Source: an uncultured Selenomonadaceae bacterium
Lineage (GTDB): Bacteria > Bacillota > Negativicutes > Selenomonadales > Selenomonadaceae
DNA: 64,000 nt
Assembly (NCBI GenBank): GCA_905234235.1
Contig: CAJOHN010000003.1
Location: 1-64,000, forward strand
Reading direction: 5' to 3'
Positions within the stretch are counted from its first letter, which is position 1. The number at the start of each line of letters is the position of its first letter. Below the pieces are notes generated by a model. The model searched no databases. It saw only the letters and a program-made list of their open reading frames with translations, and was not told the origin of the DNA. Below, piece after piece: positions 27-61,524 of this stretch. Made by a program: the position numbers and the translations under genes.

Positions 27-81
27 CCCAAACACCTCCTCTAAAAAATTTTGCGACAGCTATACAGCCGCCGCGCAGATT

Positions 82-3000
82 TTAATGCATGTTCAGATTT
101 TTTTCAAGAAGAATTTTTCCTTGTCGCATGAGCGAGGAAATTTTGTACGTACTACTGACAACAGCAAAGTCGGGCGGACTGGTAAACGGCGTTTTGAGAT
201 AAACCACGTGAGCCGAATTGTTATCGACAGTGACGATTGCGAGGATAAAATTTTCGGGCGAGTTCAGCGCGGTTAAAATTTCGTTTTTCGTCACAGTAAC
301 CGTATCGGCTCCGGAAGCGCGCCCTTTGACTTCAATAAAACGCGGACGCCCGCTCTGTTTTTCGCGGGATTCAATATCGTAGCCGCACTTATTGTTGCTT
401 ACGTCGCTGGGGACATTACCAAGCTCGCGCTCAATCTTCATGACTGTTTCCATTGCGATTTTTTCGATACGCGAACGCGCCACAACATCCGTCGCGAAAT
501 TTTTCTCGGCAGAATATTTGAAGTAACCGCGAGGAACAATCAACGCGCCGCCTACCACGACGGGAGGCGATGTTAAAATTTTTCGCTCCAAAGTAATTTC
601 AGCAAGTCGGCGATTTAATTGATTTGCCAATTCATCTGCGCACCGTCTTGCCTGTTCGGAGTTAAGTTTATCCGTTGCGCTCAAATCGTTGGCGCGTTCA
701 TCCCAATAACTGATTTCACTGCGCAACCGCGTTTTGAGTTCACGTTCAAGCTTATCGAGATACAATTTTTTCTTCGCGGCGCACTCTTGACGATACGGCA
801 CTAAAATATTTTTTATCGTGTAACTGACCGCAAAATCCTCAACATTATTTTTAAGCCAATGTAACTTTTGAATGACCGACAAAATTTTTTCGCGTTCGTT
901 ATGTGTCGGCGACCGATAATCAAGATACGGCGCGGGACTTGTTGGAACCGTGCGACCATCCTCTAAAATTTCCACGAAATGCAATCGCTTAGCAATAACC
1001 TGCGACCGTCCGTCAGAAAGTTTAACTTCGACGTAGAAAAGCAATCGAAAATCTTGCCCAACGTCAGCGTCGTCAATAAATATCGTGCCGCGCTTGAGTA
1101 CGTTTCCATATTGCTCAAAAATCTTGGAACTCACTGCCGTTAAAAGAGGATGACCGGAAGCTAAAAGTTCAGCCGACTCAACGCCCGAAATATTGCAACT
1201 ATTCTTATCGAAACAAATCCGCTTATAACTTTTCGCCACAGGCTCGCCAAAAATATTTCGCATAGAATTATTACGGATGACACTCGGAACGTGCTGAATT
1301 TCATAGTGACCGTTATTGCGTTTATAAATTTGCCCACCCAACTTTTCAAACGCAGTCAGAAAAAATTTCTCGGTAAAATACGGTTGAAGTTTATGCAACT
1401 CCCCTCGTTCCATCATCTGATTTATATCCGCAACCTTAGCAAATCCCAGCGTGTCATCCGTCAATGTTCGTTCCCCTAAAAGTTCCCGCAACTTATCCGC
1501 GTTAAAACTTTTGTCAACGACTTTATCTAAGCGATTAATAACTTTCGGGTTGTCGCCATAACGAATCGCCTCAATCAGAAGTTCATGCAACGGCTTGTTA
1601 TCAAAAGAAACTTTGCCCATTATGTCAAAAACTTTCCCGCCGAGAGCCGCACGCTCCTCCTCCAATTTTTTCAAGAGCCGATAAAAGACTTGCCCCTCAC
1701 GAGTATTACTCGCTACCAAATTCCACAAGTGGCAAACTTCTTTCTGCCCAATCCGATGAATACGACCGAATCTTTGCTCCAAGCGATTTGGATTCCACGG
1801 CAAGTCATAGTTAATCATCAAGTGAGCGTTTTGAAGATTGATACCCTCGCCCGCCGCGTCCGTCGCAACGAGTATGAAAACATTCTTATCCGATTTGAAT
1901 TTCTCTTGAATTTTGCGGCGTTCCTTATGCTTCATTCCGCCGTGTATTGTGACGACCGCTTCATCGCGACCAAACAACGTAGAAATTTTATCCCGAAGAT
2001 AATCTAACGTGTCGCGGTGTTCCGTGAAGATGATTAACTTATCGCGCTCGCCTTTGTGATTCAAAAATTTTCCTTTGCTCTGAAGAAGTTCGGAAAGCTC
2101 ACGCCACTTTTTATCCTCGTTACTTCTGAAAACTTTCTTTGCCGCCTCCGTAAGTTGTTCGAGAGTTTTAATTTCATTGCGCAGTTCCTTAATTGTACGC
2201 GCAGCAGTAACTCGTTCAGCAATCTCCTCTTCCCTAGTTTCGAGTTCCCCGCTCGGAGATTCTTCGTCAAATGATTCTGCGGATAAGTCTTCGGAAATTT
2301 TCTTATCGCGTAAGATTGTTTGCAATCGTTTGGTTCTACGCTCAAGAGATCTGTAAATTGCTTGCGGCGAGGAAGCCAATCGTCTTTGTAAAATCGTCAT
2401 GGCGAATCCAATCGAAACTTTTTTATTTCCCGTCAGCCTGTCAGCGCGATTAAAACCATCGGAAACATAGTTCGTTACAAGTTCATAAAGATTCATTTCG
2501 CTCGGCGACAGATTATAACTTACGGTGTAAGCCAAACGTTCAGGGAAGAGCGGTTTGCCCTCGAATGTAATTAAATCTTCTTTAACCAATCGCCTCATTA
2601 TGTCCGAAACATCAACGTGCCCTCTAATCCGCTTGGCACCTGCAAACCTATCCGGGTCGACAAGTGACATAAACAAATGGAAGTCTTCTTCGTTGCCATT
2701 ATGCGGCGTCGCAGTCATTAATAAAAAATTTCCGGTAATCTTGCTGAGCAATTGACCGAGCTTAAAACGTTTCGTGTACTCAGTTTTATTACCCCAAATT
2801 GTTGCGGACATCTTATGCGCCTCGTCACAGACGATTAAATCCCAAGTTACAGCTCGCAGTTTGTCTTTAAATTCGTCATTACGGGATAAAACGTCCATGC
2901 TTACAATGCCGAAATTCACATCTGCAAAAACATTGGCGGCTAAATTTATTTTTTCGCTTGTTAAAATCTCAAAACTAAGATGGAACTTACACTGAAGTTC

Positions 3001-3537: not shown

Positions 3538-3581
3538 TCCGACATCAGCTGATAAAGATTTTTAGTTAGGTAGTGATTGTT

Positions 3582-5281: not shown

Positions 5282-7165
5282 ATGAAAAATTTGCTCTACA
5301 CAATCAAGGCAAACACTCCCAAAGAGGAGATTATTCAACAACTGCGCGAGCACCAAGAAATAAAATTTGTGTCGTTGGTCGGGATTGATTTGGCGGGCAA
5401 CGACACTGATGAAAAAATCCCGATGCGGCTTTTCCTTAAGGATATTGACGATTTTTACGCGGGGACTGCTGTTCAAACTGACGGCTCAAGCGTCGTGTTG
5501 CCGGGTATCGCCACGCTCAACAACGCCAAAGTCGATATGCCCGTCGATCCGACTGTTAATTGGTTCGTCGATTATAATTTTGAATACTTCGACGACGAAA
5601 CGAATTGCCCCGTTGGAACGTTGCGCATTCCGAGTTTTCTGATTCACGAGGGTAAACACGTCGACAGCCGCGCCATTTTGACTGACACTTTGGCTTTCGT
5701 TAAGCGTGAACTTCTCGATCTCTTCCATAAGTTCCCCGAAGTTGACGGGCTTGACGTGAGCGGCTCCGCGATAACCGATATTGTTTTCACGTCGGCGACG
5801 GAGCTGGAATTTTGGGTAAAAACTCCGCTTGAAGATGCGGTGATTGAAGAAATGAGCGCGTCGCAGGTTATGCAGGAGCAATATTGGCAAAGAACTCACG
5901 GTGCGGTTCGCTGTGCTTTGGAAAAATGTGTAATCGAGCTTGATAAATACGGTTTCGGCGTCGAAATGGGGCACAAGGAAGTTGGCGGGCTTAAGGCTCA
6001 AATTGATGAGTCGGGGCATTTAACGCACGTCTGCGAACAGCTGGAAATTGATTGGCGATTTGCTGACGCAGTGCAAGCAGCTGATAATGAAATGTTCGTG
6101 CGCACGATTGTTAAAGAAATTTTCCGCGCAGAAGGTTTGGAAGTCAGTTTCAAGGCTAAACCGATGATTGGATTGGCTGGAAACGGCGAACACACGCACA
6201 TTGGACTTGCGGCAGTCACGAGCGACGGGAAGTTACATAATCTTTTCGCCGCGAAAAATCCTTACGAAGATTTTATGAGCGCAGTCGGCTACGGCGCGAT
6301 TATGGGCTTGCTGAAAAATTACGAAGTCATCAACCCGTTTGTCAGCGCGACCAACGATTCTTTGAACAGATTAAAGCCCGGCTTTGAGGCTCCCGTTTGT
6401 ATCGTAACTTCGCTCGGACACACGCCGAAAATCCCAAGTCGTAACAGAACAATTCTTGCGGGCTTGATTCGTGATTTGAAAAATCCGATGGCGACGCGCT
6501 TTGAACTTCGCGCCTGCAATCCTTACACGAATACTTATCTGGTTTTGGCGGCGTCTTACTCGGCGATTCTCGACGGTGTGCGTTATGCGATTGAAAGATC
6601 ATCTGTCGATTTGCTTACCGAACTCAGCAAAAAGGCGGGGCAGGACGGTTTCTATCTTGAAAAGTCTCGTGCTTATCGTTCGGAGGCGGATGTTTTCGAG
6701 GACTTCACCGCCGAAGAACGCGACGCAATGTTTGGAGCACCTCCCGCAACCGTTTGGGAGAATATGCAGGCGTTTGAAAATTATCCCGCAAAAGTCAAAG
6801 TCATCACGGCTGGCGGCGCGCTTCGTACACAAATTATCAAGTCCTTCAAAATCGGCGCACTGCTACGTTGGAAGACCGAGATTATCGCGAGGATTTTGCC
6901 CGAAATGCGTAATATCGTCCGCAAGGCTCGCCTTATCGAAAGTAACAGCCGTACGGATCAAGACTCTTACAACTGGAATAAACTCAAGGACGCTCGCGAA
7001 TATCTCGCCAAAGATTCAATCGATAAAAAATCATTGTTCACGCGGCTCACCAACGCTTTAAACAGCGGAGACTTCGCAACGGCGTCAAAATTGCAAGTTG
7101 AGATGTATGTCAAGATCGAGGAACTCAAGCACCTCCACGATGAATACGTCAAAAACAATATCTGA
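5282..7165 (+). CDS. glnA: Glutamine synthetase, long form with C-terminal extension
   Basis: Glutamine synthetase makes glutamine from glutamate, ammonia and ATP. The protein has 627 residues, against about 440-470 for common type I enzymes and about 700 for type III. Seen: the catalytic-domain segments ATELEFWVKTPLED, VEMGHKEVGGLKAQID, AKPMIGLAGNGEHTHIGL (the histidine loop), NRLKPGFEAPV and SRNRTILAG. About 140 residues follow the catalytic domain and look mostly helical; their role is unknown. The ribosome site AGGAGG precedes the ATG by 7 bases. It sits downstream of the PII gene and upstream of glutamate synthase, so the operon holds the full GS-GOGAT route. I do not assign the subtype. 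Confidence 0.9.
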   Translation: MKNLLYTIKANTPKEEIIQQLREHQEIKFVSLVGIDLAGNDTDEKIPMRLFLKDIDDFYAGTAVQTDGSSVVLPGIATLNNAKVDMPVDPTVNWFVDYNFEYFDDETNCPVGTLRIPSFLIHEGKHVDSRAILTDTLAFVKRELLDLFHKFPEVDGLDVSGSAITDIVFTSATELEFWVKTPLEDAVIEEMSASQVMQEQYWQRTHGAVRCALEKCVIELDKYGFGVEMGHKEVGGLKAQIDESGHLTHVCEQLEIDWRFADAVQAADNEMFVRTIVKEIFRAEGLEVSFKAKPMIGLAGNGEHTHIGLAAVTSDGKLHNLFAAKNPYEDFMSAVGYGAIMGLLKNYEVINPFVSATNDSLNRLKPGFEAPVCIVTSLGHTPKIPSRNRTILAGLIRDLKNPMATRFELRACNPYTNTYLVLAASYSAILDGVRYAIERSSVDLLTELSKKAGQDGFYLEKSRAYRSEADVFEDFTAEERDAMFGAPPATVWENMQAFENYPAKVKVITAGGALRTQIIKSFKIGALLRWKTEIIARILPEMRNIVRKARLIESNSRTDQDSYNWNKLKDAREYLAKDSIDKKSLFTRLTNALNSGDFATASKLQVEMYVKIEELKHLHDEYVKNNI

Positions 7166-7227: not shown

Positions 7228-8328
7228 ATGTGTAGAATCGGAGCGGTAAAGAGTAAAAAACCGATTTATCCGTCCACAGCGTTGCGATTAATGCTACCAC
7301 AGCAAGAAGGGCATGATAATTCGGGATTTGCAATGGTCATGCAAGATTTATCTGGCGTATTTTCGCTTTACAAGGATAAACCGCTGCTTTCAATGGCTTG
7401 CACCAAGCAAGGAGCGCGTTTGGTCGAAGATTACATGTCCGCGCAGAATTTCGTTAAAATGGCGGAGTGGTTGCCCGTTCCCGACAAGAAAAAAGGCTTA
7501 GATATTCAAAATATGCCGTATTATATCTTCCGCAACTACGATTATCCCGAACATTACGACGACGAGGACAGTCGCGAGGCACTTTTACTCGATACTCGGC
7601 TTGCATTGCGGAAAATTTTGACTGAATCGGGTCAAGGATACGTTTATTCCTTTTGGCCCGACGTTTTGACGCTGAAAGAGATTGGAGACCCGCGAGATAT
7701 TGCAACTTACTTCCGACTTTGGGACGATAACGGAACTTTGCTTGCGAAAAACATAATTGTGCAGTGTCGGCAGAATACAAATTATAAAATCGTGCGTTAC
7801 GCGGCTCATCCGTTCTTTTTGCAGGGATATACGCTCTGCGCGAACGGCGAAAACACTTTTTACACGAAAAATAAGGAGTTTCAGAAGAATTTACATCGCG
7901 GCTACATCGGATTTGAATCTGACTCGCAAAATTTTTTATACACGTTGCATTACGTTTTGCACGAATTAAAATGGTCAATTCCTTATTATAAACACGTGAT
8001 AACGCCTTTACCGTTCGCAGAAATAGAAAATCGTCCCGACAAAGAAATTTTGCTGTCAATTCGCCAATCGCTGGCACATTTGGAAATAAATGGACCGAAT
8101 ACTATAATTGCGGGCTTGCCGGACGGAAAAATGATGACTTGTTGCGATTCAAAGAAGTTAAGACCCGTTGTAGTCGGCGGAGACGACAATATTATTGCGA
8201 TTTCGTCCGAAGTCTGCGGAATTAACGAAATTTTGCCCGACAGAAACATGGAACGCGATATTTATCCGAACGAGCGCGAAGTTGTGGTGATAAATAACAA
8301 TTTGGAGGTGACGAGATGGAAACAATAA
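7228..8328 (+). CDS. Glutamate synthase amidotransferase subunit (class II GATase domain)
   Basis: A 366-residue class II glutamine amidotransferase. Seen: Met-Cys-Arg at the N-terminus, so Cys2 would be exposed as the nucleophile after Met removal; EGHDNSGFAMVMQDL, matching the family's RGxDSxG area; and DDNIIAISSEVCGI near the C-terminus, as in GltB domain 1. It releases ammonia from glutamine for the FMN subunit encoded next. The ribosome site GGAGGAG is 5 bases before the ATG. Its stop overlaps the next start, so the two are probably translated together. In most bacteria this domain is fused into the roughly 1500-residue GltB; here it is a separate polypeptide. Confidence 0.85.
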   Translation: MCRIGAVKSKKPIYPSTALRLMLPQQEGHDNSGFAMVMQDLSGVFSLYKDKPLLSMACTKQGARLVEDYMSAQNFVKMAEWLPVPDKKKGLDIQNMPYYIFRNYDYPEHYDDEDSREALLLDTRLALRKILTESGQGYVYSFWPDVLTLKEIGDPRDIATYFRLWDDNGTLLAKNIIVQCRQNTNYKIVRYAAHPFFLQGYTLCANGENTFYTKNKEFQKNLHRGYIGFESDSQNFLYTLHYVLHELKWSIPYYKHVITPLPFAEIENRPDKEILLSIRQSLAHLEINGPNTIIAGLPDGKMMTCCDSKKLRPVVVGGDDNIIAISSEVCGINEILPDRNMERDIYPNEREVVVINNNLEVTRWKQ

Positions 8329-9951: not shown

Positions 9952-12276
9952 ATGTTAAAAATAGCAACGACGAGAAATCATGAGCGAATGTCGACGCAAG
10001 ATCTTTTATTGATGATAGAATCGGCAGTACGCGACGGAGAAACGGATTTTGACATTTCTGCGAGCGGTCAGCACAATATTGGCGGCGCAGTTTGGAATTT
10101 GGAAGGAAAAACTTTAAAATTTCACATTACGAACGCGGGACAGCGAGTTGGGTCGATGTGTTTGCCGAATACGGAAATTATTGTCGAAGGATCGACTTCT
10201 GCGGACGTTGGCTGGCTGAATGCGGGCGGAATCATCACTGTAAAGGGCGATGCGGGCGATACGGCGGGACATTGCTCATCAGGCGGCAAAATTTATATCG
10301 GCGGGCGTGCAGGAACGCGAACAGGCTCTTTAATGAAACATGATCCGCTTTATGAGGAACCGGAGCTTTGGATTTTAAAAAATGTGGGAAGTTTTTCGTT
10401 TGAATTTATGGGCGGCGGTCGAGCGGTGATTTGCGGCGTCGATTGCGAAAATTTTTCGTCTGTAACGGGCGAAAGACCTTGCGTAGGCATGGTAAGCGGC
10501 GTAGTTTATGTTCGCGGGCAAATTTCCGACTTTCCCGAAGATATTTTATGTTTGGAACTTGATTCTGACGATATTTCGTTTTTAAAGGGCGGAATGAATC
10601 ATTTTTTGAACGCGATAGAAAAATCTGAGTTAATTGCCGAACTTTCGGACTGGAAAGAGTGGAAAAAACTTCGTCCGCTGACATTTGAGGAGAAAAAACC
10701 TCCGATTGTCCATAACATTGCCGATTTCAGGAAAAAAGATTGGATTAAGGGCGGAATTTTCCACAACGTGGCGACAGATGATTTTATCGTGTTGAATACG
10801 GTCAATCGCGGGCTTTATCGTCTGCGCGTGCCGAGTTGGGATAATGAAAAATTTTCTGCGCCGTGCCAGTTCATGTGTCCGACAGGTATTCCGACGCAAA
10901 AACGGCTAAATTTACTGCGTCAAGGTAAAATCGACGAGGCATTGAAACTTATTTTGAAATATACGCCGTTTCCCAGTTCGATTTGCGGAACTTTATGCCC
11001 AAATCCTTGCATGGAAGGTTGCACGCGCGGAAAAATCGACGAATCAATACAAATCGGCGCGTTGGGACTTGAATCGGCTCGCGTCGAGGTTGAGCCGCCG
11101 AAAATTTTAACCGGTAAGCGCGTCGGGATAATCGGAGGCGGCGTTGCGGGCTTGAGTGCGGCTTGGCAACTCGTTTTAATGGGGCATTCGGTCACAGTTT
11201 TTGATGATGCGGCGCAGATAGGTGGAAAATTGGCGCAAGTGATACCTCATTCGAGAATTTCGCCCGAATTGATAAAATCTGAAGTGAATCGCGTAGAAAA
11301 ACTCGGCGTGACGTTCAAAAGTAATTGCAAAGTTGATTTTGAGATGTTCAAAGCGATTTGCGAGGAGTTTGACGCGGTTTTGGTTGCGACGGGCGGAAAT
11401 AAGGCGCGATATTTTAATTGGGAAGGCGCGGAGAAGTTAATTCACGGCATAGAGTTTTTGAAATCGATAAATCGTGGCGAAGAAGTTCAAATCGGGAAAA
11501 ATATCGTGGTAATCGGCGGCGGAAATTCCGGCATGGACGTTGCGACGAGTGCATACGAGCAAGGCGCGGAAAAAGTTATCGTTGTGGACGTGATGAAGCC
11601 CGCCGCGTTTGAAAAAGAGATAAGACGGCTGAAAAATTTTGGCGGCGAGATAATTTATCCGTTTATGACGAAAAAAATCACCGACGAAGGAATTTTTTCC
11701 GACGACGGCAGATTTATAGCGGCGGATATGGTAATTGTGTCGATAGGCGAGGCACCTGTACTGAATTTCTTGCCTGAAGTAAAAAAATTTCGCGATTGGT
11801 TGGTTACGGACGATAAAAAAATGATTTTGCCCAAAGTTTTTGCGGCAGGCGACGTAATTAAGCCCGGCAGATTGACAGACGCGATAGGTGACGCTCGAAT
11901 TACTGCGATAGCGATTGATAAATATCTGCGCGGCGAAAAAATTTCTTTGCCGGCAAAAAAAATTCGCGTTCCCGACGAAAATTTATCCAAAAAATATTTC
12001 GAGAAGTGTCATCACTGCGATTTACCCGACCCTATGCATGAACATTTACGTTGCGTGAGTTGCGGCACGTGTCGCGATTGCAAAATGTGCTTAAATTCCT
12101 GTCCCGAAAAAGCTATCAGCCGCATTGAGCATGACGACGGCTCTTGGGAATACATTTCCGACGAAAATAAATGCATTGGTTGCGGAATCTGCGCGGGCGT
12201 GTGTCCTTGCGGCGTCTGGAACCTCAGCGACAATCCCGAAGAAATTCACATGTACAGAACCTACACCGCCAGTTAA
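9952..12276 (+). CDS. GXGXG domain fused to GltD-like NAD(P)H oxidoreductase
   Basis: A 774-residue fusion. Residues about 1-240 are the GXGXG beta-helix normally found at the end of GltB (GWLNAGGIITVKGDAGD, GGKIYIGGRAGTRTGS). Residues about 300-680 are a GltD-type flavoprotein with the Cys cluster CQFMCPTGIPT...CGTLCPNPCMEGC, an FAD motif GIIGGGVAGLSAAW, a pyridine-nucleotide motif VVIGGGNSGMDVA and the closing FAD motif AAGDVIKPGRLTDAIGDA. The C-terminus adds two ferredoxin motifs (CGTCRDCKMCLNSCP, CIGCGICAGVCPCG). It should pass electrons from NAD(P)H to the FMN subunit. The three proteins together equal GltBD. The GXGXG-GltD fusion differs from the classical split and is the notable point here. 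Confidence 0.9.
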   Translation: MLKIATTRNHERMSTQDLLLMIESAVRDGETDFDISASGQHNIGGAVWNLEGKTLKFHITNAGQRVGSMCLPNTEIIVEGSTSADVGWLNAGGIITVKGDAGDTAGHCSSGGKIYIGGRAGTRTGSLMKHDPLYEEPELWILKNVGSFSFEFMGGGRAVICGVDCENFSSVTGERPCVGMVSGVVYVRGQISDFPEDILCLELDSDDISFLKGGMNHFLNAIEKSELIAELSDWKEWKKLRPLTFEEKKPPIVHNIADFRKKDWIKGGIFHNVATDDFIVLNTVNRGLYRLRVPSWDNEKFSAPCQFMCPTGIPTQKRLNLLRQGKIDEALKLILKYTPFPSSICGTLCPNPCMEGCTRGKIDESIQIGALGLESARVEVEPPKILTGKRVGIIGGGVAGLSAAWQLVLMGHSVTVFDDAAQIGGKLAQVIPHSRISPELIKSEVNRVEKLGVTFKSNCKVDFEMFKAICEEFDAVLVATGGNKARYFNWEGAEKLIHGIEFLKSINRGEEVQIGKNIVVIGGGNSGMDVATSAYEQGAEKVIVVDVMKPAAFEKEIRRLKNFGGEIIYPFMTKKITDEGIFSDDGRFIAADMVIVSIGEAPVLNFLPEVKKFRDWLVTDDKKMILPKVFAAGDVIKPGRLTDAIGDARITAIAIDKYLRGEKISLPAKKIRVPDENLSKKYFEKCHHCDLPDPMHEHLRCVSCGTCRDCKMCLNSCPEKAISRIEHDDGSWEYISDENKCIGCGICAGVCPCGVWNLSDNPEEIHMYRTYTAS

Positions 12277-33710: not shown

Positions 33711-33739
33711 TTATGGTTCCGCGCAGAATCATTTATAAT
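33711..33739 (+). promoter_or_regulatory. Possible promoter of the winged-helix regulator gene
   Basis: A perfect TATAAT (33734-33739) with a weak TTATGG 17 bases upstream. The spacer contains an intergenic copy of the dispersed oligomer CCGCGCAGA (33719-33727). Confidence 0.45.
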
Positions 33740-52108: not shown

Positions 52109-53362
52109 ATGAAGCGACCTTTTTTTCTTGGTTTAGGCGTGATTTTAGTTCTGATAGTTGCGCTTATAACCTACGGGACTTATTTAAATCAGCGTGGCGA
52201 AAGTCAAATAGCGGAGCGAATGAGCGACCAAACAATTCCTCTGCGCGGGGCGAAAGTTGAAGTGCGGCAACTCAAGCCGAGATTGGCACTCGATACGCTG
52301 AATCTTTATTCGGACAGAATGGCGGACGCGGTGGCGTTACTCGACGGCAGAATCACTTCGATTGCCGCGCAGAAAAATGATCGCGTCGCTCAGGGGCAGT
52401 CTTTGTTTACCGTAACGAATGAATCTTATCCGATAAAAATTCGGCAGGCGGACATTGACGTTCTCAAAGTCGACAATGAAATTATCCAGAGTGATAACGA
52501 GATCTTAAAGGCTGAAACTAATCTTGCTCGCGCCAAAAGCGACTTTGAACGTTACAGCCGATTGATTGTGCAGGAGGCAGTCACAGCCGAAAAGTTCGAG
52601 GAGATTGAGGCGGTTTACAAAGAGGCGCAGGTTAATCTCAGGAATGCGCACGTTCAAAAGGAATCATTACTTGCGCAGAGGGATTATTTAAGCGCGCAGA
52701 AGGAACAACTCTTGATTGAAAATTCATACAGCGAAGTAACCGCGCCAATCGACGGCGAGGTTTTGATTCTGTACAAAACTCTCGGCTCATACGTGACGGC
52801 GGGCACTCCGATGGCTTTGGTCGGAGATTTTCGGACGCTGAATTTTTCCGTCGATATTGAAGACAAATTTTCAAGGAGATTCAGGACGGGCGAGATGGCA
52901 ACGCTCCATTTCAACCGCGCAGATTTTTCCAAGATTTACGACACGGAATATGAAGCGGGCAATTCCGGCAAAGATCAAAGATTCACGGCGCGCATCGTCG
53001 AGATAACTCCGTCGCCGTCAGTTCCCGCGTCGATAAGAAAAATTCTTTGGGAAGTCGATAACCGCGCAGGACTTCTTGAGCCACAAACTTACAACGCAAC
53101 GGCTTTGCAGATGACTATGCCGCGCACTTGTCTAACAATACCGCTTACGGCAATGACTTCGCCCGCGCAGAATGAAGTTTTCGTTGTCGCTGACGGGAAA
53201 ATTTATCGTCGTGAGATTGAAACAGGTTCTGACGACGGAACTTTTATCGAAGTCGTTAAAGGTCTCAAGGAAAATGAATTGGTCGTAACCAGCGGCACAG
53301 ACGGTCTTGAAGACGGCATGAAAGTTGATTTTACACTTGAAGGAGGCGAGGACATTGGCTGA
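52109..53362 (+). CDS. HlyD/RND-type membrane fusion adaptor
   Basis: 417 residues. One N-terminal membrane segment (FFLGLGVILVLIVALITYGT), a split biotinyl-lipoyl domain (LDGRITSIAAQKNDRVAQGQ and APIDGEVLILYKTLGSYV), a coiled coil between them (residues about 110-205, rich in Glu, Lys and Ala) and a beta-barrel C-terminal part. It bridges an inner-membrane exporter to TolC. AGGAG lies 11 bases before the ATG. It overlaps the next adaptor gene by 8 bases. Its build is more like RND-type adaptors than the NHLM adaptor encoded next. Confidence 0.85.
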   Translation: MKRPFFLGLGVILVLIVALITYGTYLNQRGESQIAERMSDQTIPLRGAKVEVRQLKPRLALDTLNLYSDRMADAVALLDGRITSIAAQKNDRVAQGQSLFTVTNESYPIKIRQADIDVLKVDNEIIQSDNEILKAETNLARAKSDFERYSRLIVQEAVTAEKFEEIEAVYKEAQVNLRNAHVQKESLLAQRDYLSAQKEQLLIENSYSEVTAPIDGEVLILYKTLGSYVTAGTPMALVGDFRTLNFSVDIEDKFSRRFRTGEMATLHFNRADFSKIYDTEYEAGNSGKDQRFTARIVEITPSPSVPASIRKILWEVDNRAGLLEPQTYNATALQMTMPRTCLTIPLTAMTSPAQNEVFVVADGKIYRREIETGSDDGTFIEVVKGLKENELVVTSGTDGLEDGMKVDFTLEGGEDIG

Positions 53363-54315: not shown

Positions 54316-56520
54316 ATGATAAACCGAATCAAAAATTTGTTCGGCTCTGCGCGGCGTGCGAAGGTTCCAACGATTTTGCAAATGGAAGCGGTCGAATGCG
54401 GCGCGGCGTCTTTAGCTATGGTTTTGGCGAGTTTCGGGCTTTGGGTTCCTCTTGAAAAAATGCGTCAAGAGTGCGGCGTCAACCGCGACGGCTCCAAAGC
54501 GTCGAACATAATCAAGGCGGCGCGGAAACGCGGTTGTGAGGCAAAAGGTTATCGCTGGAAGGCTGATACCCTCAGGGATAAGCCGTGCCCGATGATAATT
54601 CACTGGGAGTTTAATCATTTCGTCGTACTCGAAGGAATTATTAACGACGTTGCTTATCTGAACGATCCGGGTATGGGGCGGCGTAAAGTTCCTTGGGAAG
54701 AATTCCGCACGTCCTACACGGGCATTGCGATGACGTTCAAACCCGGCAAAGATTTCAAGCGCGAAGGTCACAGATACAGTATCGTTAAGGCGATTGCCGA
54801 AAAACTCGTTCAAGATAAAGCCGCAATGGTTTTCGTAATGCTGATTAGTTTCGGAATGATTTTCCCGTCGCTCGCAACGCCGGTGTTCAATCAAATTTTT
54901 CTTGACGACATTTTAAGCGGCAAGCACCCCGATTGGATGTTCAATTTGTGTTGTGCGATGGGCGGTACAATCTTTTTAATCGGCGTTTTGAATGCAATGC
55001 GAAGAAATTTACTGACGCGTTGGCAAAAAAAATTGACGCTCGCCGATTCGTCAAGATTTTTCTGGCACGTCATAAGATTGCCGATGAACTTTTTCCAACA
55101 ACGTTTTGCAGGCGAAATTGCCTCGCGTGTTGATTTCAATGAGCAGGTTGCGAACGTCCTTTCCGACCAAGCCGCAACCGCCGTTTTGGATTTTGTTATC
55201 GTAATTTTTTATCTGTCGTTGCTCCTTCAATACAGCGTGACGCTTACGATTATCGGTGTCGGGTTCAGCGTCGTGAATTTAGTTGTCTTTTTTATTTTGC
55301 GCCGACAAATTACGGATATGAACATGCAAGTTCAGCAGGCGAAGGGTAAAGAGTTCGGCACGGCGGTTAACGGCCTGACGATGATTGAAACGATTAAAGC
55401 CAACGGCAACGAGGGCGATTTTTTCGCGAAATGGGCAGGCTATCACTCCAAAGCTTTAATCGGAACGCAGGAAGTTCAAATGAAGTCGATGACAATGAAC
55501 GTTTTGCCGACTTTGCTGACGGGCGTGAACTCCGCGCTGATAATTACAATCGGCGGCTTTTCGATAATGGAAGGCGTCATGACGGCAGGCGTTTTCATGG
55601 CGTTCCAAAATCTGATGACGAGTTTTCAAACGCCGTTCAATAACTTGGTGCAACTCGGAACACTTTTACAATCGACGGAAATGCAAATGCAACGCCTCGA
55701 TGATGTTTATCGCTATCAAGTCGACAGTTTGAATTACCCAGAAGAAACTCGCGTAAATAATTTCAAGGGCACGCGTTTATCTGGCGCAATCGAACTTCGC
55801 AATATAAATTTTGGTTACAGTCCGCTTGAGCCGCCGCTTTTGGAGAATTTTAATTTGAAAGTCGAGCCGGGGCGTTGGGTTGCGATTGTAGGATTCAGCG
55901 GTTCGGGAAAATCGACGCTCTCAAAAATTCTTACGGGTTTTTACGAGGAATGGAGCGGCGACGTTTTATTTGACGGCGTTAAGCGTCGCGAAATTCCCCG
56001 CGATGTGATTGTCAATTCGCTGTCGTCGGTTGACCAAGATATTTTCCAAATTACCGGCACTGTTCGCGAAAATATCACGCTGTTCGATACTTCCGTCAAG
56101 AAAGATGACGTTATCCGCGCCGCGCAGGACGCTTGCATTCACGAAGATATTTTGAAACTCGAAGGCGGCTACGAGGCTAAAGTTTCCGAAGGCGGATTAA
56201 ATTTCAGCGGCGGGCAACGTCAAAGATTGGAAATTGCCCGCGCTCTTTGTTCTAATCCGTCGATTTTGGTTTTGGACGAGGCAACTTCCGCGCTCGACCC
56301 CGTCACCGAGAAAATTGTTTTGGACAATATTCGCAGGCGCGGTTGTTCGTGCTTTATCGTGGCGCACAGACTTTCAACAATCAGAGACTGCGACGAGATT
56401 GTCGTTTTGGACAGAGGCAAAGTCGTCGAACGCGGCACGCATCGCGAGATGATGTCTCACAACGGCGCATATAAACGCTTGATTGAAGGCAGCGATAAAA
56501 ATACGGAGGAGGCGAGCTGA
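54316..56520 (+). CDS. NHLM-type peptidase/ABC exporter (C39 peptidase fused)
   Basis: 734 residues. Residues about 15-145 are a C39 peptidase with the catalytic Cys in MEAVECGAASLAMVLASFG and the His in HWEFNHFVVLEGI. Six membrane segments span about 165-460. The ABC ATPase shows Walker A GFSGSGKSTLSK, signature FSGGQRQRLEIAR, Walker B ILVLDEATSALD and the switch His in VAHRLSTI. It cuts leaders after GG and exports the core. The substrates are most likely the VAGG peptides at 44402 and 44755. The stop and the next start overlap by 1 base. Confidence 0.93.
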   Translation: MINRIKNLFGSARRAKVPTILQMEAVECGAASLAMVLASFGLWVPLEKMRQECGVNRDGSKASNIIKAARKRGCEAKGYRWKADTLRDKPCPMIIHWEFNHFVVLEGIINDVAYLNDPGMGRRKVPWEEFRTSYTGIAMTFKPGKDFKREGHRYSIVKAIAEKLVQDKAAMVFVMLISFGMIFPSLATPVFNQIFLDDILSGKHPDWMFNLCCAMGGTIFLIGVLNAMRRNLLTRWQKKLTLADSSRFFWHVIRLPMNFFQQRFAGEIASRVDFNEQVANVLSDQAATAVLDFVIVIFYLSLLLQYSVTLTIIGVGFSVVNLVVFFILRRQITDMNMQVQQAKGKEFGTAVNGLTMIETIKANGNEGDFFAKWAGYHSKALIGTQEVQMKSMTMNVLPTLLTGVNSALIITIGGFSIMEGVMTAGVFMAFQNLMTSFQTPFNNLVQLGTLLQSTEMQMQRLDDVYRYQVDSLNYPEETRVNNFKGTRLSGAIELRNINFGYSPLEPPLLENFNLKVEPGRWVAIVGFSGSGKSTLSKILTGFYEEWSGDVLFDGVKRREIPRDVIVNSLSSVDQDIFQITGTVRENITLFDTSVKKDDVIRAAQDACIHEDILKLEGGYEAKVSEGGLNFSGGQRQRLEIARALCSNPSILVLDEATSALDPVTEKIVLDNIRRRGCSCFIVAHRLSTIRDCDEIVVLDRGKVVERGTHREMMSHNGAYKRLIEGSDKNTEEAS

Positions 56521-59207
56521 TGAAACTTTTAGCTGGACAACGATTAAAATTGCACGACGAAGATAAGTTTGTGCGATTGAAGTCGGGCGTGGCAGAAGTT
56601 TACGCCGTCACTCACTTAAAAGAATCGTTCCGACAAATTTTTTTAATGGAATTGCCGATAAACGGAGCCGCTTACCCGTCACTGGACGAATTTGAACGAA
56701 TCGACACGCAGATTTACGCCGTGCAAGATTCGGAGCTGGAAATTTTATCGTTCGATGATATTGAGCTGTCCGAACAAGTCAAATTAATGCGTTCGTGGTT
56801 CCAAAATTTGATAAAGCTGTCGTGGCTGAGGCTTTTGGCTGATAAAGGCGACGACGTTTTAATGAACTGGGTAAACGGGCAAGTCCTGCGCGGCTCCGAA
56901 GACGATTTGGACGCTTTAGTCGACGACTTCACCGAAAATGAACAGATTTTTGCAATGTTGCTCGGTATGCGCTTTGAGGCGGAAGATAAACGGCTTTCAT
57001 TGCGAATGGAAACGCGCAGTCGTCACAAGAAAAATCTTATCAACGCCGCGATTGATAATTTAAGCGGTGAGGAGTCACTTTACGGCGAGGATTCGGGCGG
57101 CGAAGGCAAATTGGAAGAAATTGCCTTCCTCGTTAAGCACGTCGCCAAATTTCTCGATATGCCCGCCAATAATTTGCAAGTCGCGCCTGAAGTCGTTAAG
57201 AAACTCGACCAAGTCGGCTTGATTCGGCGGCTCGTTCAAAAGGGAAATATGCAAATGCGCCTCGTGACGTTGGAGGGCGATTGGTTTCAGAAGGACAGCG
57301 GCGTTTTTATCGGCTACTTTGGCGACAAGAAAGAACTCGCCGCGTTTATTCCGCAAGCTCCCGACGTTTACAAACTGATTACCGCAAAAAATCCCGACGG
57401 AACTCTGATTGACAAACAAATTGCCGCGCAGATTGAGCCGAGCGCGTTCCAATGTTATGCGGGATTGCCGCTTCGCAAGCTGAAATTTATTGACCTGATG
57501 AAATTCATGCTGAAACGTAGTTGGCACGTCGATTATCGCCAGGTTTTGGCGGCAAGTTTTATCGCGGGTTTAATTCCGCTCCTCACGCCGATAATCACGG
57601 AAAGTATCTTCGCGGATATAATTCCGATACTCGACAGGCGCGGGCTGGTTATCGTCACGCAAGTTTCAATCGTTACGGCGTTTACAATGGCGGCGGTTTC
57701 AATCGTGCGTCAAATCGCGGTGCTCAGAATCACTTCGCATATCGACATGCAAACTGAAGCGGCACTCTGGGGCAGAATTTTAGCTTTGCCGACGAGTTTT
57801 TTCCGACGCTTTCAATCGGGCGAACTCGCGCAAAGAATTTTGGGCATTGAACAAATAAAAATGGTCATCAACGGCGACATGATCTCAGCGATATTCAACG
57901 TGCTGTTTTCGTTTTGGAGTTTAATGTTGATGTGCTACTACAGCCTGCAACTCACGGCGGCGGCGTTAGCGTTGTGGCTTGTGTACTTCGGCTTGACGGT
58001 TTTTATTTATCGCAAGGTCGGAATGTTTCAAGGCAAAATGGTTGCGGCTAAAAATTTAACGTCGGGACTTGTTCAGCAGATTTTTGCGGGCTTGCCGAAG
58101 TTTAGAATCAGCGGCGCGGAAGAACAGGCTTATTTCCTCTGGAGTAAAGTTTTCGGCGAGGAATGGAAATGGAATTTGCAACTGCGCCTGCAAGATAATT
58201 ACAGTAAAATTTTATCGGCACTGCAACCGCTGACACTGACTTTGTTGCTGTATTACGTGGCATTTTACGTTTTGAGCGACGTTAAGGGCGAAATTTTCGT
58301 GCCGGGCATTGATTACGCAAAATTTATCGCGTTCCAATCGGCGTTTACCGCTCTGAACATGACTTTGAACACGATGACGGGCTTAGTCGGACAATTCTTC
58401 AAGATTCAGCCGCAGATAGAGAATTTGCGCCCAATTTTGGAGGAGACGCCCGAAGTTGCAGAAGATAAACCTGATGCCGAAGTTTTGAGCGGCGCGATTG
58501 AAATTTCGCATTTAAGTTTTTCATACACCGAAGACGGACCTAACATTGTCGACGATATGAGTTTTAGGATTGCGGCGGGCGAAAATGTCGCGTTCGTCGG
58601 CAAAAGCGGTTGCGGAAAATCAACTTTGCTTCGTTTAATGCTCGGTTTTGAGAAACCAAAGAGCGGCGCAGTTTATTATGACGGTCAAGATTTGTCGGAA
58701 CTCAATGTTTCGTCGGTGCGCAGTCAAATGGGCGTGGTTTTGCAGAACGGTCAGCTTATGAGCGGCGATATTTTTACAAACATTGTTGGCGCGACTGCTT
58801 TGACGCAAGATGACGCTTGGGAAGCCGCTAAAGCCGCCGGACTCGATGAAGACATTAAAAAAATGCCAATGGGTATGCAAACCGTCATCAGCGAAGGCTC
58901 AAGCAACATTTCGGGCGGGCAAAGACAAAGAATTTTAATCGCCCGCGCCTTAGCCGCCAAGCCTGCGATTTTAATCTTCGATGAGGCAACTTCCGCGCTC
59001 GATAACCGCACTCAAGCCATTGTTACCGAAAGTTTGAACAAAAGGAACGTCACGCGCATTGTTGTGGCGCACAGATTGAGCACGATCGAAGATTGCGACC
59101 GCGTAATCGTCTTGGACGCGGGAAAAATCGTTGAGAGCGGCACTTTTGACGAACTCGTTGCGCTGAACGGGATTTTCGCCGATTTAGTTAGGCGGCAAAT
59201 GGCATGA
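56520..59207 (+). CDS. NHLM-type ABC exporter, second subunit, no C39 domain
   Basis: 895 residues. The first 330 or so form a soluble region without the Cys-His peptidase motifs (KLLAGQRLKLHDEDKFVRLK, RSWFQNLIKLSWLRLLADKG), as in NHLM transporters of this kind. Membrane segments follow from about 345, then an ABC ATPase with GKSGCGKSTLLRL, ISGGQRQRILIARALA, ILIFDEATSALD and VAHRLSTIED. It probably pairs with the preceding exporter as a heterodimer. The start overlaps the preceding gene's stop and the end overlaps the upstream codons of the sigma gene. Confidence 0.92.
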   Translation: MKLLAGQRLKLHDEDKFVRLKSGVAEVYAVTHLKESFRQIFLMELPINGAAYPSLDEFERIDTQIYAVQDSELEILSFDDIELSEQVKLMRSWFQNLIKLSWLRLLADKGDDVLMNWVNGQVLRGSEDDLDALVDDFTENEQIFAMLLGMRFEAEDKRLSLRMETRSRHKKNLINAAIDNLSGEESLYGEDSGGEGKLEEIAFLVKHVAKFLDMPANNLQVAPEVVKKLDQVGLIRRLVQKGNMQMRLVTLEGDWFQKDSGVFIGYFGDKKELAAFIPQAPDVYKLITAKNPDGTLIDKQIAAQIEPSAFQCYAGLPLRKLKFIDLMKFMLKRSWHVDYRQVLAASFIAGLIPLLTPIITESIFADIIPILDRRGLVIVTQVSIVTAFTMAAVSIVRQIAVLRITSHIDMQTEAALWGRILALPTSFFRRFQSGELAQRILGIEQIKMVINGDMISAIFNVLFSFWSLMLMCYYSLQLTAAALALWLVYFGLTVFIYRKVGMFQGKMVAAKNLTSGLVQQIFAGLPKFRISGAEEQAYFLWSKVFGEEWKWNLQLRLQDNYSKILSALQPLTLTLLLYYVAFYVLSDVKGEIFVPGIDYAKFIAFQSAFTALNMTLNTMTGLVGQFFKIQPQIENLRPILEETPEVAEDKPDAEVLSGAIEISHLSFSYTEDGPNIVDDMSFRIAAGENVAFVGKSGCGKSTLLRLMLGFEKPKSGAVYYDGQDLSELNVSSVRSQMGVVLQNGQLMSGDIFTNIVGATALTQDDAWEAAKAAGLDEDIKKMPMGMQTVISEGSSNISGGQRQRILIARALAAKPAILIFDEATSALDNRTQAIVTESLNKRNVTRIVVAHRLSTIEDCDRVIVLDAGKIVESGTFDELVALNGIFADLVRRQMA

Positions 59208-59215
59208 GGTGTATT

Positions 59216-59713: not shown

Positions 59714-59720
59714 ATAAAAA

Positions 59721-59759: not shown

Positions 59760-59778
59760 GTGTGTTAATCGTCAAGAA

Positions 59779-60264
59779 TCATTTTGTCTTGATGTAATTT
59801 ATGAGCCCGCCCGCGTCGGCGATACCCTGCACAAACGGCGGTAAAGGTTGAGCTTTAAAAATGTCGCCCGTCGTGAGGTTTTCAATCGTGCCGGTTGCCG
59901 TGTCGATTTTTAAAACGTCGTTGGCAGAAATTTTTTCAACGTCGTCGCCAATTTCGAGGAGCGGCAAGCCGATATTAATTCCATTGCGATAAAAAATCCT
60001 CGCGAAACTCGCCGCGATAACAACAGGAATCCCCGACGCCTTAATCGCAACGGGCGCATGTTCGCGACTGGAACCGCAACCGAAATTTTTTCCGCCGACC
60101 ATAACGTCGCCCGCCTTGACGTTCTGAGCAAAAGTTTCGTCAATGTCAACCATACAATGTTTAGCCAACTCCGCAGGGTCGAAAGTGTTCAAGTACCGCG
60201 CAGGGATTATCACATCAGTATCAATGTTGTCGCCGTAACGCCAGACTTTGCCTTCAATCTTCAT
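59779..60264 (-). CDS. leuD: 3-isopropylmalate dehydratase small subunit LeuD
   Basis: 161 residues, the swivel domain of isopropylmalate isomerase. Seen: [20 protein letters not shown] at the start and [20 protein letters not shown], both signatures of the family. The remaining part ([17 protein letters not shown]) matches the substrate-binding region. The short form without a long C-terminal tail is the type found in archaea and anaerobic bacteria. It follows leuC on the minus strand with no gap and ends before the terminator at 59721-59759. Confidence 0.95.
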
Positions 60265-61524
60265 TTAAATCACCTCATCGGGAGTAGAAATTTTTCCTGT
60301 AATCGCAGACGCCGCCGCCACAAACGGACTCGCCAAATAAACTTCGCTATCGACGTGCCCCATGCGCCCTCTGAAATTCCTATTCGTCGTCGAAACGCAA
60401 CGCTCGCCCGCGCTAAGAATTCCCATGTAACCTCCCAAGCAAGGTCCGCACGTCGGGCAACTCACTACACAGCCCGCATCGATAAACATTTCTATCCAAT
60501 GACAACGCAACGCCTCTTTATAAATTTCTTGACTGCCGGGAATGATTATACAACGAACATCGGGATGAACTTTTTTCCCGCGCAGAATCCCCGCCGCTAT
60601 GCTCAAATCTTCAAGCCGCCCGTTCGTGCACGAGCCGATAACTACTTGGTTAATTTTAATTTCGCCGAGTTCCTCGACGGGCTTAACGTTTTCCGGCAAA
60701 TGCGGCAATGCGACAACAGGTTTCAATTCGCTGAGATTAATTTCGACAGTTGAGGAATATTTAGCATCGTCGTCAGCGGCAACAGGCTCGAAAGATTTTT
60801 TTACTCGGCGCGCCGCATAAAGTTTTGCGCGTTCATCGAACGGGAAAACGCCCGCTTTTGCGCCCGCTTCAATCGCCATGTTGGAAATCGTCAAGCGGTC
60901 AGTCATTGAAAGTTCGGCGACGCCCTCGCCCGTGAATTCCAACGCTTTATAAAGTGCACCGTCAACGCCAATCTTGCCAATCAGTGTGAGGATAACGTCT
61001 TTGCCGCAAATATTTTTAGGTTTCTTGCCCGTCAAACGAACATTGATAGCTTCGGGAACTTTGAACCAAGCCTTACCGGTCGCCAAGCCGACAGCCAAAT
61101 CAGTTGTGCCGACTCCCGTCGAAAATGCGTTGACTGCGCCGTAAGTGCAAGTGTGACTGTCCGCGCCGATAATCAACATGCCCGGCGCAACGATACCGAA
61201 TTCGGGCAAGATAACGTGTTCAATGCCGACGCGTCCCTGTTCGTAGTAGTGCGTGATTTTATTTTTACGGGCGAAGTCGCGCATAATCTTTGCCAAGTCC
61301 GCGCTCTTGATGTCTTTGGCGGGTTGGAAGTGGTCAGGTATCAGCGCGATTTTTTCTGCGTCAAAGACAGGTCGCCCGATTTTTTCAAACTCTTTGATTG
61401 ACGGCGGTCCGGTTACGTCGTTCGCCATAACCAAATCCAAATCACAAATAACAAGTTGCCCCGCTTCGACGCTTTCAAGTCCTGCGTGTCGTGCGAGGAT
61501 TTTTTCGCTCATTGTCATGCCCAT
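60265..61524 (-). CDS. leuC: 3-isopropylmalate dehydratase large subunit LeuC
   Basis: 419 residues, the [4Fe-4S] aconitase-fold subunit that converts 2-isopropylmalate to 3-isopropylmalate in leucine synthesis. Seen: [20 protein letters not shown], the cluster ligand in VIGSCTNGR, and [13 protein letters not shown] with the other two Cys. The AGGAG site is 9 bases before the first ATG (61524); a second ATG follows two codons later. It is followed directly by leuD. Upstream it is preceded by a glycosyltransferase gene, not by another leucine gene. Confidence 0.95.

What the first reader, a model, noticed from the sequence alone, without database searches (positions are those of the whole stretch)
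71..60586. CCGCGCAGA is strongly over-represented: candidate DNA uptake sequence
I counted 36 exact copies (20 plus, 16 minus), about one per 1.8 kb, where chance gives about 0.5. They fall in all three codon phases (Arg-Ala-Asp/Glu, Pro-Arg-Arg, Ala-Ala-Gln) and in intergenic DNA, which argues against a peptide cause. There is no strand bias, unlike KOPS or Chi. A/T-rich bases often follow. The density is like that of Haemophilus or Neisseria uptake sequences. I know of no described uptake sequence in Negativicutes.
Basis: seen in the sequence. Interest (0 to 1): 0.85.

Follow-up and report, generated by a model that had tools for sequence, protein, structure and literature searches.

The report
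Candidate DNA-uptake tag in Quinella bacteria
The genome of an uncultured rumen bacterium carries a short DNA tag about once every thousand letters, with different spellings in its relatives, which looks like the 'take up my own DNA' labels described in two families of other bacteria; that it works this way is inferred, not shown.

Summary
The core is CCGCGCAG followed by A/G and T-rich bases, about one per kb. Codon-preserving shuffles expect 30 copies where 470 are seen. Density is equal in coding and intergenic DNA, with no strand or GC-skew bias; copies avoid lying within about 100 bp of each other. The host belongs to the Quinella group (rumen Selenomonadaceae): 37 of 66 genus genomes searched carry at least 200 copies, against 0 of 123 family members in other genera. 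Relatives use one-base variants: TCGCGCAG in a supported clade, probably also the palindromes CTGCGCAG and TCCGCGCGGA. Pilus ATPases, PilC, secretin, ComEA and ComEC are present. Best explanation: an independently evolved DNA-uptake sequence with dialects (about 0.7). The main rival is a methylation-linked repeat like HIP1; palindromic variants fit it, the asymmetric main motif and spacing avoidance do not. Uptake is untested, and three hallmarks of known uptake sequences are absent: inverted pairs, non-coding preference and graded mismatches.

The parts
71..79 (+). CCGCGCAGA copy
   Evidence: exact match
6124..6132 (+). CCGCGCAGA copy
   Evidence: exact match
7439..7447 (+). CCGCGCAGA copy
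   Evidence: exact match
11925..11933 (-). CCGCGCAGA copy
   Evidence: exact match
12188..12196 (-). CCGCGCAGA copy
   Evidence: exact match
13172..13180 (-). CCGCGCAGA copy
   Evidence: exact match
17718..17726 (+). CCGCGCAGA copy
   Evidence: exact match
18290..18298 (-). CCGCGCAGA copy
   Evidence: exact match
19204..19212 (-). CCGCGCAGA copy
   Evidence: exact match
21659..21667 (+). CCGCGCAGA copy
   Evidence: exact match
22238..22246 (-). CCGCGCAGA copy
   Evidence: exact match
24095..24103 (+). CCGCGCAGA copy
   Evidence: exact match
25766..25774 (-). CCGCGCAGA copy
   Evidence: exact match
26717..26725 (+). CCGCGCAGA copy
   Evidence: exact match
27201..27209 (-). CCGCGCAGA copy
   Evidence: exact match
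27463..27471 (+). CCGCGCAGA copy
   Evidence: exact match
28170..28178 (-). CCGCGCAGA copy
   Evidence: exact match
29215..29223 (-). CCGCGCAGA copy
   Evidence: exact match
29556..29564 (-). CCGCGCAGA copy
   Evidence: exact match
30128..30136 (+). CCGCGCAGA copy
   Evidence: exact match
30416..30424 (+). CCGCGCAGA copy
   Evidence: exact match
33719..33727 (+). CCGCGCAGA copy
   Evidence: exact match
36628..36636 (-). CCGCGCAGA copy
   Evidence: exact match
37350..37358 (-). CCGCGCAGA copy
   Evidence: exact match
37908..37916 (+). CCGCGCAGA copy
   Evidence: exact match
38340..38348 (-). CCGCGCAGA copy
   Evidence: exact match
43728..43736 (-). CCGCGCAGA copy
   Evidence: exact match
45398..45406 (+). 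CCGCGCAGA copy
   Evidence: exact match
47056..47064 (-). CCGCGCAGA copy
   Evidence: exact match
48175..48183 (+). CCGCGCAGA copy
   Evidence: exact match
49007..49015 (-). CCGCGCAGA copy
   Evidence: exact match
50695..50703 (+). CCGCGCAGA copy
   Evidence: exact match
52240..52248 (-). CCGCGCAGA copy
   Evidence: exact match
52365..52373 (+). CCGCGCAGA copy
   Evidence: exact match
52915..52923 (+). CCGCGCAGA copy
   Evidence: exact match
53163..53171 (+). CCGCGCAGA copy
   Evidence: exact match
54346..54354 (-). CCGCGCAGA copy
   Evidence: exact match
57424..57432 (+). CCGCGCAGA copy
   Evidence: exact match
60578..60586 (+). CCGCGCAGA copy
   Evidence: exact match
14284..14291 (+). core CCGCGCAG not followed by A
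   Evidence: 8-mer list
15843..15850 (-). core CCGCGCAG not followed by A
   Evidence: 8-mer list
20043..20050 (+). core CCGCGCAG not followed by A
   Evidence: 8-mer list
21060..21067 (+). core CCGCGCAG not followed by A
   Evidence: 8-mer list
22835..22842 (+). core CCGCGCAG not followed by A
   Evidence: 8-mer list
30259..30266 (+). core CCGCGCAG not followed by A
   Evidence: 8-mer list
30865..30872 (+). core CCGCGCAG not followed by A
   Evidence: 8-mer list
34741..34748 (+). core CCGCGCAG not followed by A
   Evidence: 8-mer list
35401..35408 (-). core CCGCGCAG not followed by A
   Evidence: 8-mer list
35893..35900 (-). core CCGCGCAG not followed by A
   Evidence: 8-mer list
37110..37117 (+). 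core CCGCGCAG not followed by A
   Evidence: 8-mer list
41193..41200 (+). core CCGCGCAG not followed by A
   Evidence: 8-mer list
41286..41293 (+). core CCGCGCAG not followed by A
   Evidence: 8-mer list
53062..53069 (+). core CCGCGCAG not followed by A
   Evidence: 8-mer list
56120..56127 (+). core CCGCGCAG not followed by A
   Evidence: 8-mer list
56886..56893 (-). core CCGCGCAG not followed by A
   Evidence: 8-mer list
60196..60203 (+). core CCGCGCAG not followed by A
   Evidence: 8-mer list
62109..62116 (-). core CCGCGCAG not followed by A
   Evidence: 8-mer list
63039..63046 (+). core CCGCGCAG not followed by A
   Evidence: 8-mer list
63478..63485 (-). core CCGCGCAG not followed by A
   Evidence: 8-mer list

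Best explanation
CCGCGCAG followed by A/G and T-rich bases is a DNA uptake sequence (DUS/USS-type self-DNA tag) of a naturally competent Quinella-group bacterium. Inferred mechanism: a type IV pilus made with PilB, PilC and minor pilins binds extracellular DNA through a sequence-specific receptor, most likely one of the minor pilins. PilT retracts the pilus and pulls DNA through the secretin; ComEA and ComEC carry it inward. Because tagged fragments are taken up and recombined preferentially, tags accumulate by biased uptake until most kb-sized fragments carry one; a second tag close by adds nothing, so close pairs are rare. Changes of receptor specificity gave the dialects of the genus. Shown here: the motif, its distribution, its dialects and the presence of the machinery genes. 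Inferred: competence, the receptor and uptake bias.
For: Genome-wide enrichment, 1,128 against 51. 470 in ORFs against 30.3 (sd 5.5, maximum 44) in 40 codon-preserving shuffles, with equal density between genes. Asymmetric core with an RTT-rich 3' flank in 536 copies. No strand bias (267/271; 272/254 by local GC skew) and avoidance of close spacing: <30 bp 1 against 15.7, <60 bp 8 against 30.9, <100 bp 25 against 50.5, while 60 control octamers average 0.72/0.95/1.04 of expectation. The avoidance repeats in 14 other C-type genomes (<200 bp: 7 against 25.0) and, more weakly, in 8 T-type genomes (27 against 42.6). Dialects: TCGCGCAGR 1,620 and 1,750 copies in G004 and G006 against 46 and 70 controls; the seven T-type genomes in a PilC tree form one side of a branch (support 100/99), and all labels together need 10 changes, shuffled mean 19.8, as low in 0 of 200. 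Restricted to the genus: at least 200 copies in 37 of 66, against 0 of 123 other-genus family genomes. Machinery in the same genome: PilB-type and PilT-type ATPases, PilC, four pilin-like genes, ComEC, PilQ-type secretin and ComEA. A similar locus is reported as the likely DNA-uptake locus of the Negativicute Veillonella parvula (PMC5397411, passages). An integrase/methylase island has 0 cores in 7 kb, expected 7.1, P 0.0009.
Against: No experiment; Quinella is uncultured. Single-mismatch neighbours are not over-represented as a group (1.01 by Markov; 1.18 by codon shuffle), unlike the graded pattern reported for H. influenzae and N. gonorrhoeae (PMC1939737, passages). No preference for non-coding DNA and no excess of closely spaced inverted pairs, both reported for known USS and DUS (PMC1626085, passages). 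Some relatives have palindromic variants, not a DUS trait that I know of. Relatives with the machinery can have little or no motif: G003, G007 and G013 have ComEC, ATPases, PilC, secretin and ComEA hits but only 23, 35 and 1 copies of CCGCGCAGA. No receptor was identified: the model of one minor pilin has no PDB match at E <= 0.001. The island depletion is a single case.
Confidence: 0.7

Rival explanations
1. A HIP1-like highly iterated sequence: an over-represented GC-rich octamer created and kept by a DNA methyltransferase and associated mismatch repair, unrelated to uptake.
For: Abundance of about 1,000 per Mb is in the HIP range, and HIPs switch between related variants between species (PMC4390886: abstract and section 2.3). 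All four variants share a GCGC centre; the G072 and G076/G060 variants are palindromic, and flanks in G076/G060 are symmetric. Raised single mismatches lie at positions 1, 7 and 8, and the HIP1 abstract reports a bias to first and last. N4/N6 methyltransferases (PF01555) occur in 56 of 60 genus genomes and C5 enzymes (PF00145) in 42 of 60.
Against: The main motif and the T dialect are not palindromic. The own genome has no PF01555 hit and one 267-aa PF00145 ORF matching only half the profile, in an integrase island. Eight motif-rich genomes (G010, G012, G017, G019, G024, G026, G036, G066) have no PF00145 hit; G012 and G030 have neither family, though genomes are incomplete and other methylase families were not searched. 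Short-range avoidance is not expected of a local repair process.
Confidence: 0.14
2. A chromosome-organisation or other DNA-binding-protein site (nucleoid protein, segregation or recombination element) kept by selection.
For: Genome-wide spread at about 1 per kb, in genes and between them, with avoidance of close pairs.
Against: I know of no such element with this density, no strand polarity and base-by-base dialect switching between sister clades. The spread within the genus (1 to 1,128 copies) suggests a dispensable, fast-changing specificity.
Confidence: 0.1
3. A Chi-like recombination hotspot read by AddAB/RecBCD.
For: A non-palindromic octamer over-represented genome-wide.
Against: No bias to the G-rich strand (272 against 254) and plus/minus 267/271; near-equal orientation in genes (253 same, 217 opposite); palindromic variants in relatives make a polar signal implausible there.
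Confidence: 0.02
4. Codon usage, protein motifs or composition produce the repeat.
For: In relatives other octamers also exceed codon shuffles modestly.
Against: 470 against 30.3 with amino acids and codon usage kept; all six phases used; intergenic density equal.
Confidence: 0.01

Closest known systems
Neisseriaceae DNA uptake sequence (DUS) and its dialects
   Same: About one copy per kb, no orientation bias (PMC1626085 passages); contiguous motif, dialects that keep an inner core and follow clades (PMC3630211 passages; PMC12616744 passages).
   Different: Unrelated sequence, different phylum, no excess of inverted pairs, some palindromic variants, no receptor or uptake shown.
Pasteurellaceae uptake signal sequence (USS)
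   Same: Asymmetric core with an AT-rich 3' side; somewhat more regular spacing than random; two sequence types split by subclade (PMC1626085 passages; PMC12616744 passages).
   Different: Unrelated sequence; no second downstream AT motif up to position 34 of the logo; no non-coding preference; no graded mismatch series.
Cyanobacterial HIP1 and alternate HIPs
   Same: Similar abundance; octamer; species-specific variants with a shared centre (PMC4390886, abstract and section 2.3).
   Different: HIPs are palindromic and go with a cognate methyltransferase; here the main forms are asymmetric, and neither PF00145 nor PF01555 is present in every motif-rich genome.
Veillonella parvula competence locus
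   Same: Negativicute; pilus/T2SS-type locus with two traffic ATPases, an F-domain protein and pilins, identified as the likely DNA-uptake machinery by mutagenesis (PMC5397411 passages).
   Different: Its authors thought a DUS unlikely to explain its DNA-source bias (section read). In the 23 genomes of other class families CCGCGCAGA reaches at most 77 copies (control 52); whether Veillonella is among them is not known.

Membership tests
DNA uptake sequence (DUS/USS class) | Short motif, roughly one copy per kb, far above a codon-aware expectation | tested here: met
   538 cores in 533 kb; 470 against 30.3 in ORFs; 1,128 nonamers genome-wide against 51
DNA uptake sequence (DUS/USS class) | No orientation bias | tested here: met
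   267/271; G-rich strand 272 against 254
DNA uptake sequence (DUS/USS class) | Spacing more regular than random | tested here: met
   Only at short range: <60 bp 8 against 30.9, repeated in other genomes; overall CV of spacing 1.00
DNA uptake sequence (DUS/USS class) | Type IV pilus and ComEA/ComEC machinery in the same genome | tested here: met
   PilB- and PilT-type ATPases, PilC, pilin-like genes, PilQ-type secretin, ComEA, ComEC; presence of genes only, several below the NCBIfam cut-offs
DNA uptake sequence (DUS/USS class) | Dialects with a conserved inner core that follow phylogeny | tested here: met
   T dialect one side of a branch, 100/99; labels 10 changes against shuffled mean 19.8; shared GCGC centre. 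Some genomes (G015, G018, G021, G026) are raised for both forms; the two palindromic dialects rest on few sites
DNA uptake sequence (DUS/USS class) | Preference for non-coding DNA and closely spaced inverted pairs | tested here: not met
   10.1 in ORFs against 9.8 per 10 kb outside; 4 oppositely oriented pairs under 60 bp, 8 pairs in all against 31.4 expected
DNA uptake sequence (DUS/USS class) | Graded over-representation of single-mismatch forms | tested here: not met
   1.01 and 1.18 for all single mismatches; only position 1 (A,T), position 7 (C,T) and position 8 (C,T) are clearly raised
DNA uptake sequence (DUS/USS class) | Depletion in recently acquired DNA | tested here: inconclusive
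   0 of 7.1 expected in one integrase island; no excess of long gaps elsewhere
DNA uptake sequence (DUS/USS class) | Preferential uptake of motif-bearing DNA; cognate receptor | not testable with these tools
   Candidate minor pilins only
HIP-type iterated palindrome | Palindromic repeat | tested here: not met
   Own core CCGCGCAG and the T dialect are asymmetric; palindromic forms found in G060, G076, G072 and tentatively G081
HIP-type iterated palindrome | Cognate methyltransferase present | tested here: inconclusive
   PF00145 in 42 of 60 and PF01555 in 56 of 60 genus genomes, but not constant in motif-rich ones; other methylase families not searched; genomes incomplete
Chi site | Leading-strand orientation bias | tested here: not met
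   272 against 254 by local GC skew

The most novel reading that the evidence does not exclude
One genus of rumen bacteria holds a third, independently evolved uptake-sequence system whose dialects shift base by base between asymmetric and fully palindromic forms around a fixed GCGC centre. That would imply a receptor that can read either a directional or a two-fold symmetric site, or uptake coupled to methylation, bridging DUS/USS and HIP-like repeats.
Probability: 0.25. Interest if true: 0.92.

Novelty: new variant of a known kind. Interest (0 to 1): 0.8.

Why it matters
The passages seen describe uptake sequences in Neisseriaceae and Pasteurellaceae, and one calls this requirement unique to them (PMC3630211; PMC12616744). 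A third case in another phylum would show that self-tagging for transformation evolves repeatedly. It would offer a genus of more than 60 sampled genomes with several dialects for receptor co-evolution tests, and predict natural transformation in an important uncultured rumen group. Ten searches of an open-access library listed no report of it, but several lists were capped; no paper held both 'DNA uptake sequence' and 'Negativicutes'. Subscription papers and preprints were not searched.

Tried and rejected
Rejected: codon or peptide origin, Chi, terminator or paired-repeat use. A constant C5 or N4/N6 methyltransferase is not supported. Depletion of CCGCGCGG and CCGCGGAG in the own genome first looked like dialect exclusion; avoidance of CGCGCG and CCGCGG explains it. 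The three longest motif-free gaps outside the window (of those listed: two in C2, one in C1) and two window gaps hold what read as mostly housekeeping genes, judged by eye from translations, not mobile DNA. The fold search for minor pilin 1 gave nothing useful; the second pilin model was not searched further after a missing library. Codon-aware de novo scans of relatives have a noise level near z 10 in the larger samples, so CGTGCAGA in G013 and CTGCGCAG in G081 stay tentative. Of 20 class genomes sampled de novo with 3.8-33 kb each, none showed a comparable octamer, but power was low. De novo counts used 3-78 kb per relative. The TT flank of the palindromic CTGCGCAG sites in G072 (one side 12, both 1, neither 15) is what independent sides give, so it shows no direction. 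The tree used 32 of 55 genomes with a PilC hit (own included); the other 23 were not used, among them G006, whose pilC is in two pieces. Dialect labels were assigned by hand. One search crashed (division by zero) after printing the counts used here.
Full report
OBSERVATION. Among 9-mers with at least 8 copies it is the strongest outlier of the window, and CCGCGCAG has 59 copies against 3.4. The window's genome (2,148,753 bases in 46 contigs, 85.7% complete) holds 551 + 577 copies, against 25 + 26 for the letters read backwards.

ANATOMY. In 533 kb of this genome (window plus stretches) CCGCGCAG occurs 538 times; 536 copies have full flanks. After the core comes A 0.57, G 0.29, T 0.14, C 0.00, then T at 0.53 and 0.54 and weaker T; A is depleted just before the core (0.11). 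So the unit is CCGCGCAG-R-T-T with a T-rich 3' side, about 1 per kb.

NOT CODONS. Shuffling synonymous codons (amino acids and codon usage kept, 40 shuffles) expects 30.3 cores in 463 ORFs (sd 5.5, maximum 44); 470 are there. For the 9-mer it is 263 against 12.4. All six phases are used. Density is 10.1 per 10 kb in ORFs and 9.8 outside. ORFs were called by a simple script, not a trained gene finder.

NO POLARITY, BUT SPACING. Plus/minus is 267/271, and 272 against 254 relative to the local G-rich strand. Neighbours closer than 30, 60 and 100 bp number 1, 8 and 25, where 15.7, 30.9 and 50.5 are expected; 60 other octamers average 0.72, 0.95 and 1.04 of expectation. The same avoidance appears in 14 other C-type genomes (under 200 bp: 7 against 25.0; 224 sites) and, more weakly, in 8 T-type genomes (under 200 bp 27 against 42.6, under 60 bp 9 against 13.7; 256 sites). 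For H. influenzae, two USS within 100 bp were reported not to raise detectably the chance of receptor binding (PMC7811141, passages), so redundancy of close copies is what an uptake tag predicts. Longer spacings are close to exponential (CV 1.00).

WHO. The genus is thus the Quinella group of rumen Selenomonadaceae (Negativicutes). The own genome's record was not listed. In the Quinella genome paper a term search of the main text finds no 'competence', 'pilus', 'pili' or 'transformation' (PMC9585023).

RANGE AND DIALECTS. Of 66 genomes of the genus searched, 37 have at least 200 copies, and 35 are also at least 5-fold over the reversed control; forward/reverse summed over the 37 is 10,193/10,258. 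Of 123 family genomes in other genera none reaches 200 (highest 179 in G117, control 77). Of 23 genomes of other families the highest count is 77 (control 52). Genus members poor in CCGCGCAGA often have TCGCGCAG: G004 1,620 against 46, G006 1,750 against 70, G025 1,607 against 79, G034 1,268 against 70, G035 1,206 against 121, G019 995 against 111 (TCGCGCAGR). A few genomes are raised for both forms (G015, G018, G021, G026). Codon shuffles confirm the T form where tested: G004 77 against 5.0, G006 61 against 4.8, G067 23 against 1.2, weaker in G019 (22 against 6.3) and G035 (15 against 3.8). Two further forms are palindromes: CTGCGCAG in G072 (23 against 1.1; tentatively G081, 6 against 0.2) and TCCGCGCGGA in G076 (36 against 1.9) and G060 (18 against 0.8), again in and between genes. 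The cores of these forms differ from CCGCGCAG by one base each and keep GCGC. In sampled DNA G003, G007, G013, G028, G032 and G061 show no strong excess of the tested forms; their whole-genome counts of CCGCGCAGA are low but not all at control level (G007 35 against 3, G032 50 against 11, G061 70 against 17, G003 23 against 12, G028 15 against 4, G013 1 against 3). In a tree of 32 PilC proteins the seven T genomes form one side of a branch (100/99), and all labels together need 10 changes against 19.8 for shuffled labels (as low in 0 of 200). C-type genomes do not form one group.

MACHINERY. In the own genome: PilT-type ATPase, PilC (T2SSF), an FtsE-like ABC ATPase and four consecutive short ORFs with pilin-like N-termini (L074 9137-13951); a PilB/GspE-type ATPase (L073; below the NCBIfam equivalog cut-offs); ComEC/Rec2 above NCBIfam's cut-off (L075), about 5 kb from a ComF-like phosphoribosyltransferase (the ComF name is my reading); a PilQ-type secretin (L259; best match TIGR02515 at 226 bits, below its cut-off of 284) and ComEA (L260; TIGR00426 67.7 bits over 53.1, TIGR01259 below cut-off). 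ComEC is found in 39 of 41 genomes of a relatives sample, a secretin in 40 of 41 and ComEA in 38 of 41 of a genus sample, PilC in 55 of 60. The general N-methyl pilin model scores in only three genus members of 25 searched (G003, G019, G023) and not in G000, so the pilin calls rest on position, signal-peptide-like starts and models with a long N-terminal helix and C-terminal strands (pLDDT 81 and 80); Foldseek found no PDB match at E <= 0.001 for the first. Since motif-poor relatives have the machinery too, competence genes alone do not predict the motif.

RIVALS. The serious one is a HIP-like, methylation-linked repeat: abundance, variant switching and palindromic variants fit, and raised mismatches lie towards the ends (A or T at position 1, C or T at positions 7 and 8). 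In G076 and G060 flanks are symmetric (A on both sides at 40 of 61 and 23 of 30 sites); in G072 the TT flank is on one side at 12 sites, on both at 1, on neither at 15, as independent sides would give. PF01555 methyltransferases occur in 56 of 60 genus genomes and PF00145 enzymes in 42 of 60. Against it: the main forms are asymmetric, spacing avoidance is unexplained, the own genome has no PF01555 hit, and its only PF00145 hit is a 267-aa ORF matching half the profile beside an integrase. Eight motif-rich genomes lack PF00145 hits, and G012 and G030 lack both families, but most genomes are incomplete and other methylase families were not searched.

AGAINST MY READING. Known USS/DUS favour non-coding DNA and form some close inverted pairs (PMC1626085, passages); this motif does neither. 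Graded excess of single mismatches (PMC1939737, passages) is absent: 688 against 678, 631 against 533. Motif depletion in foreign DNA rests on one island: 0 cores in 7,001 bases, 7.1 expected, P 0.0009.

VERDICT. The repeat is real, concentrated in one genus, codon-independent and dialect-forming, in a host with the genes of a transformation pilus. An uptake sequence is the best explanation at about 0.7; its function is unproven.

Noticed in passing
own genome sample of 533 kb (window plus L001-L020, L073-L076): Extreme avoidance of many palindromes: GGCC 108 against 4,602 expected, GATC 550 against 4,187, CCATGG 0 against 89, CCGCGG 6 against 749, GATATC 6 against 312, GGCGCC 12 against 368, GTTAAC 10 against 236, CTCGAG 12 against 227 (both-strand counts). 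Suggests long exposure to many restriction systems.
   Followed up: partly
L261 (G000:C5:128000-135000): Small island with a C5 methylase of 267 aa, a phage integrase and a 359-aa ORF without Pfam match, free of the motif.
   Followed up: partly
window 39202-43770 (-): 1,522-aa ORF without any Pfam match at E <= 0.001, beside a 1,326-aa ORF (35078-39058) whose N-terminal part is an alpha/beta hydrolase.
   Followed up: no
L074 11306-12028 and 18916-19803: An ftsE-like gene lies between pilC and the pilin genes, while an ftsX-like gene is about 7 kb away; in several T-dialect relatives an ORF whose start reads as ftsX follows ftsE and no clear pilin genes lie in the next 5 kb or so. Names are by my reading of translations.
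   Followed up: no
G006:C54:376-1564: pilC reads in two overlapping pieces, one holding a TAG stop, in a genome with 1,750 T-dialect copies; a sequencing error or a recent loss.
   Followed up: no
own genome sample: AAAATTTT is also strongly over-represented (1,092 both-strand counts against 323), as in many genus members; not explained.
   Followed up: no
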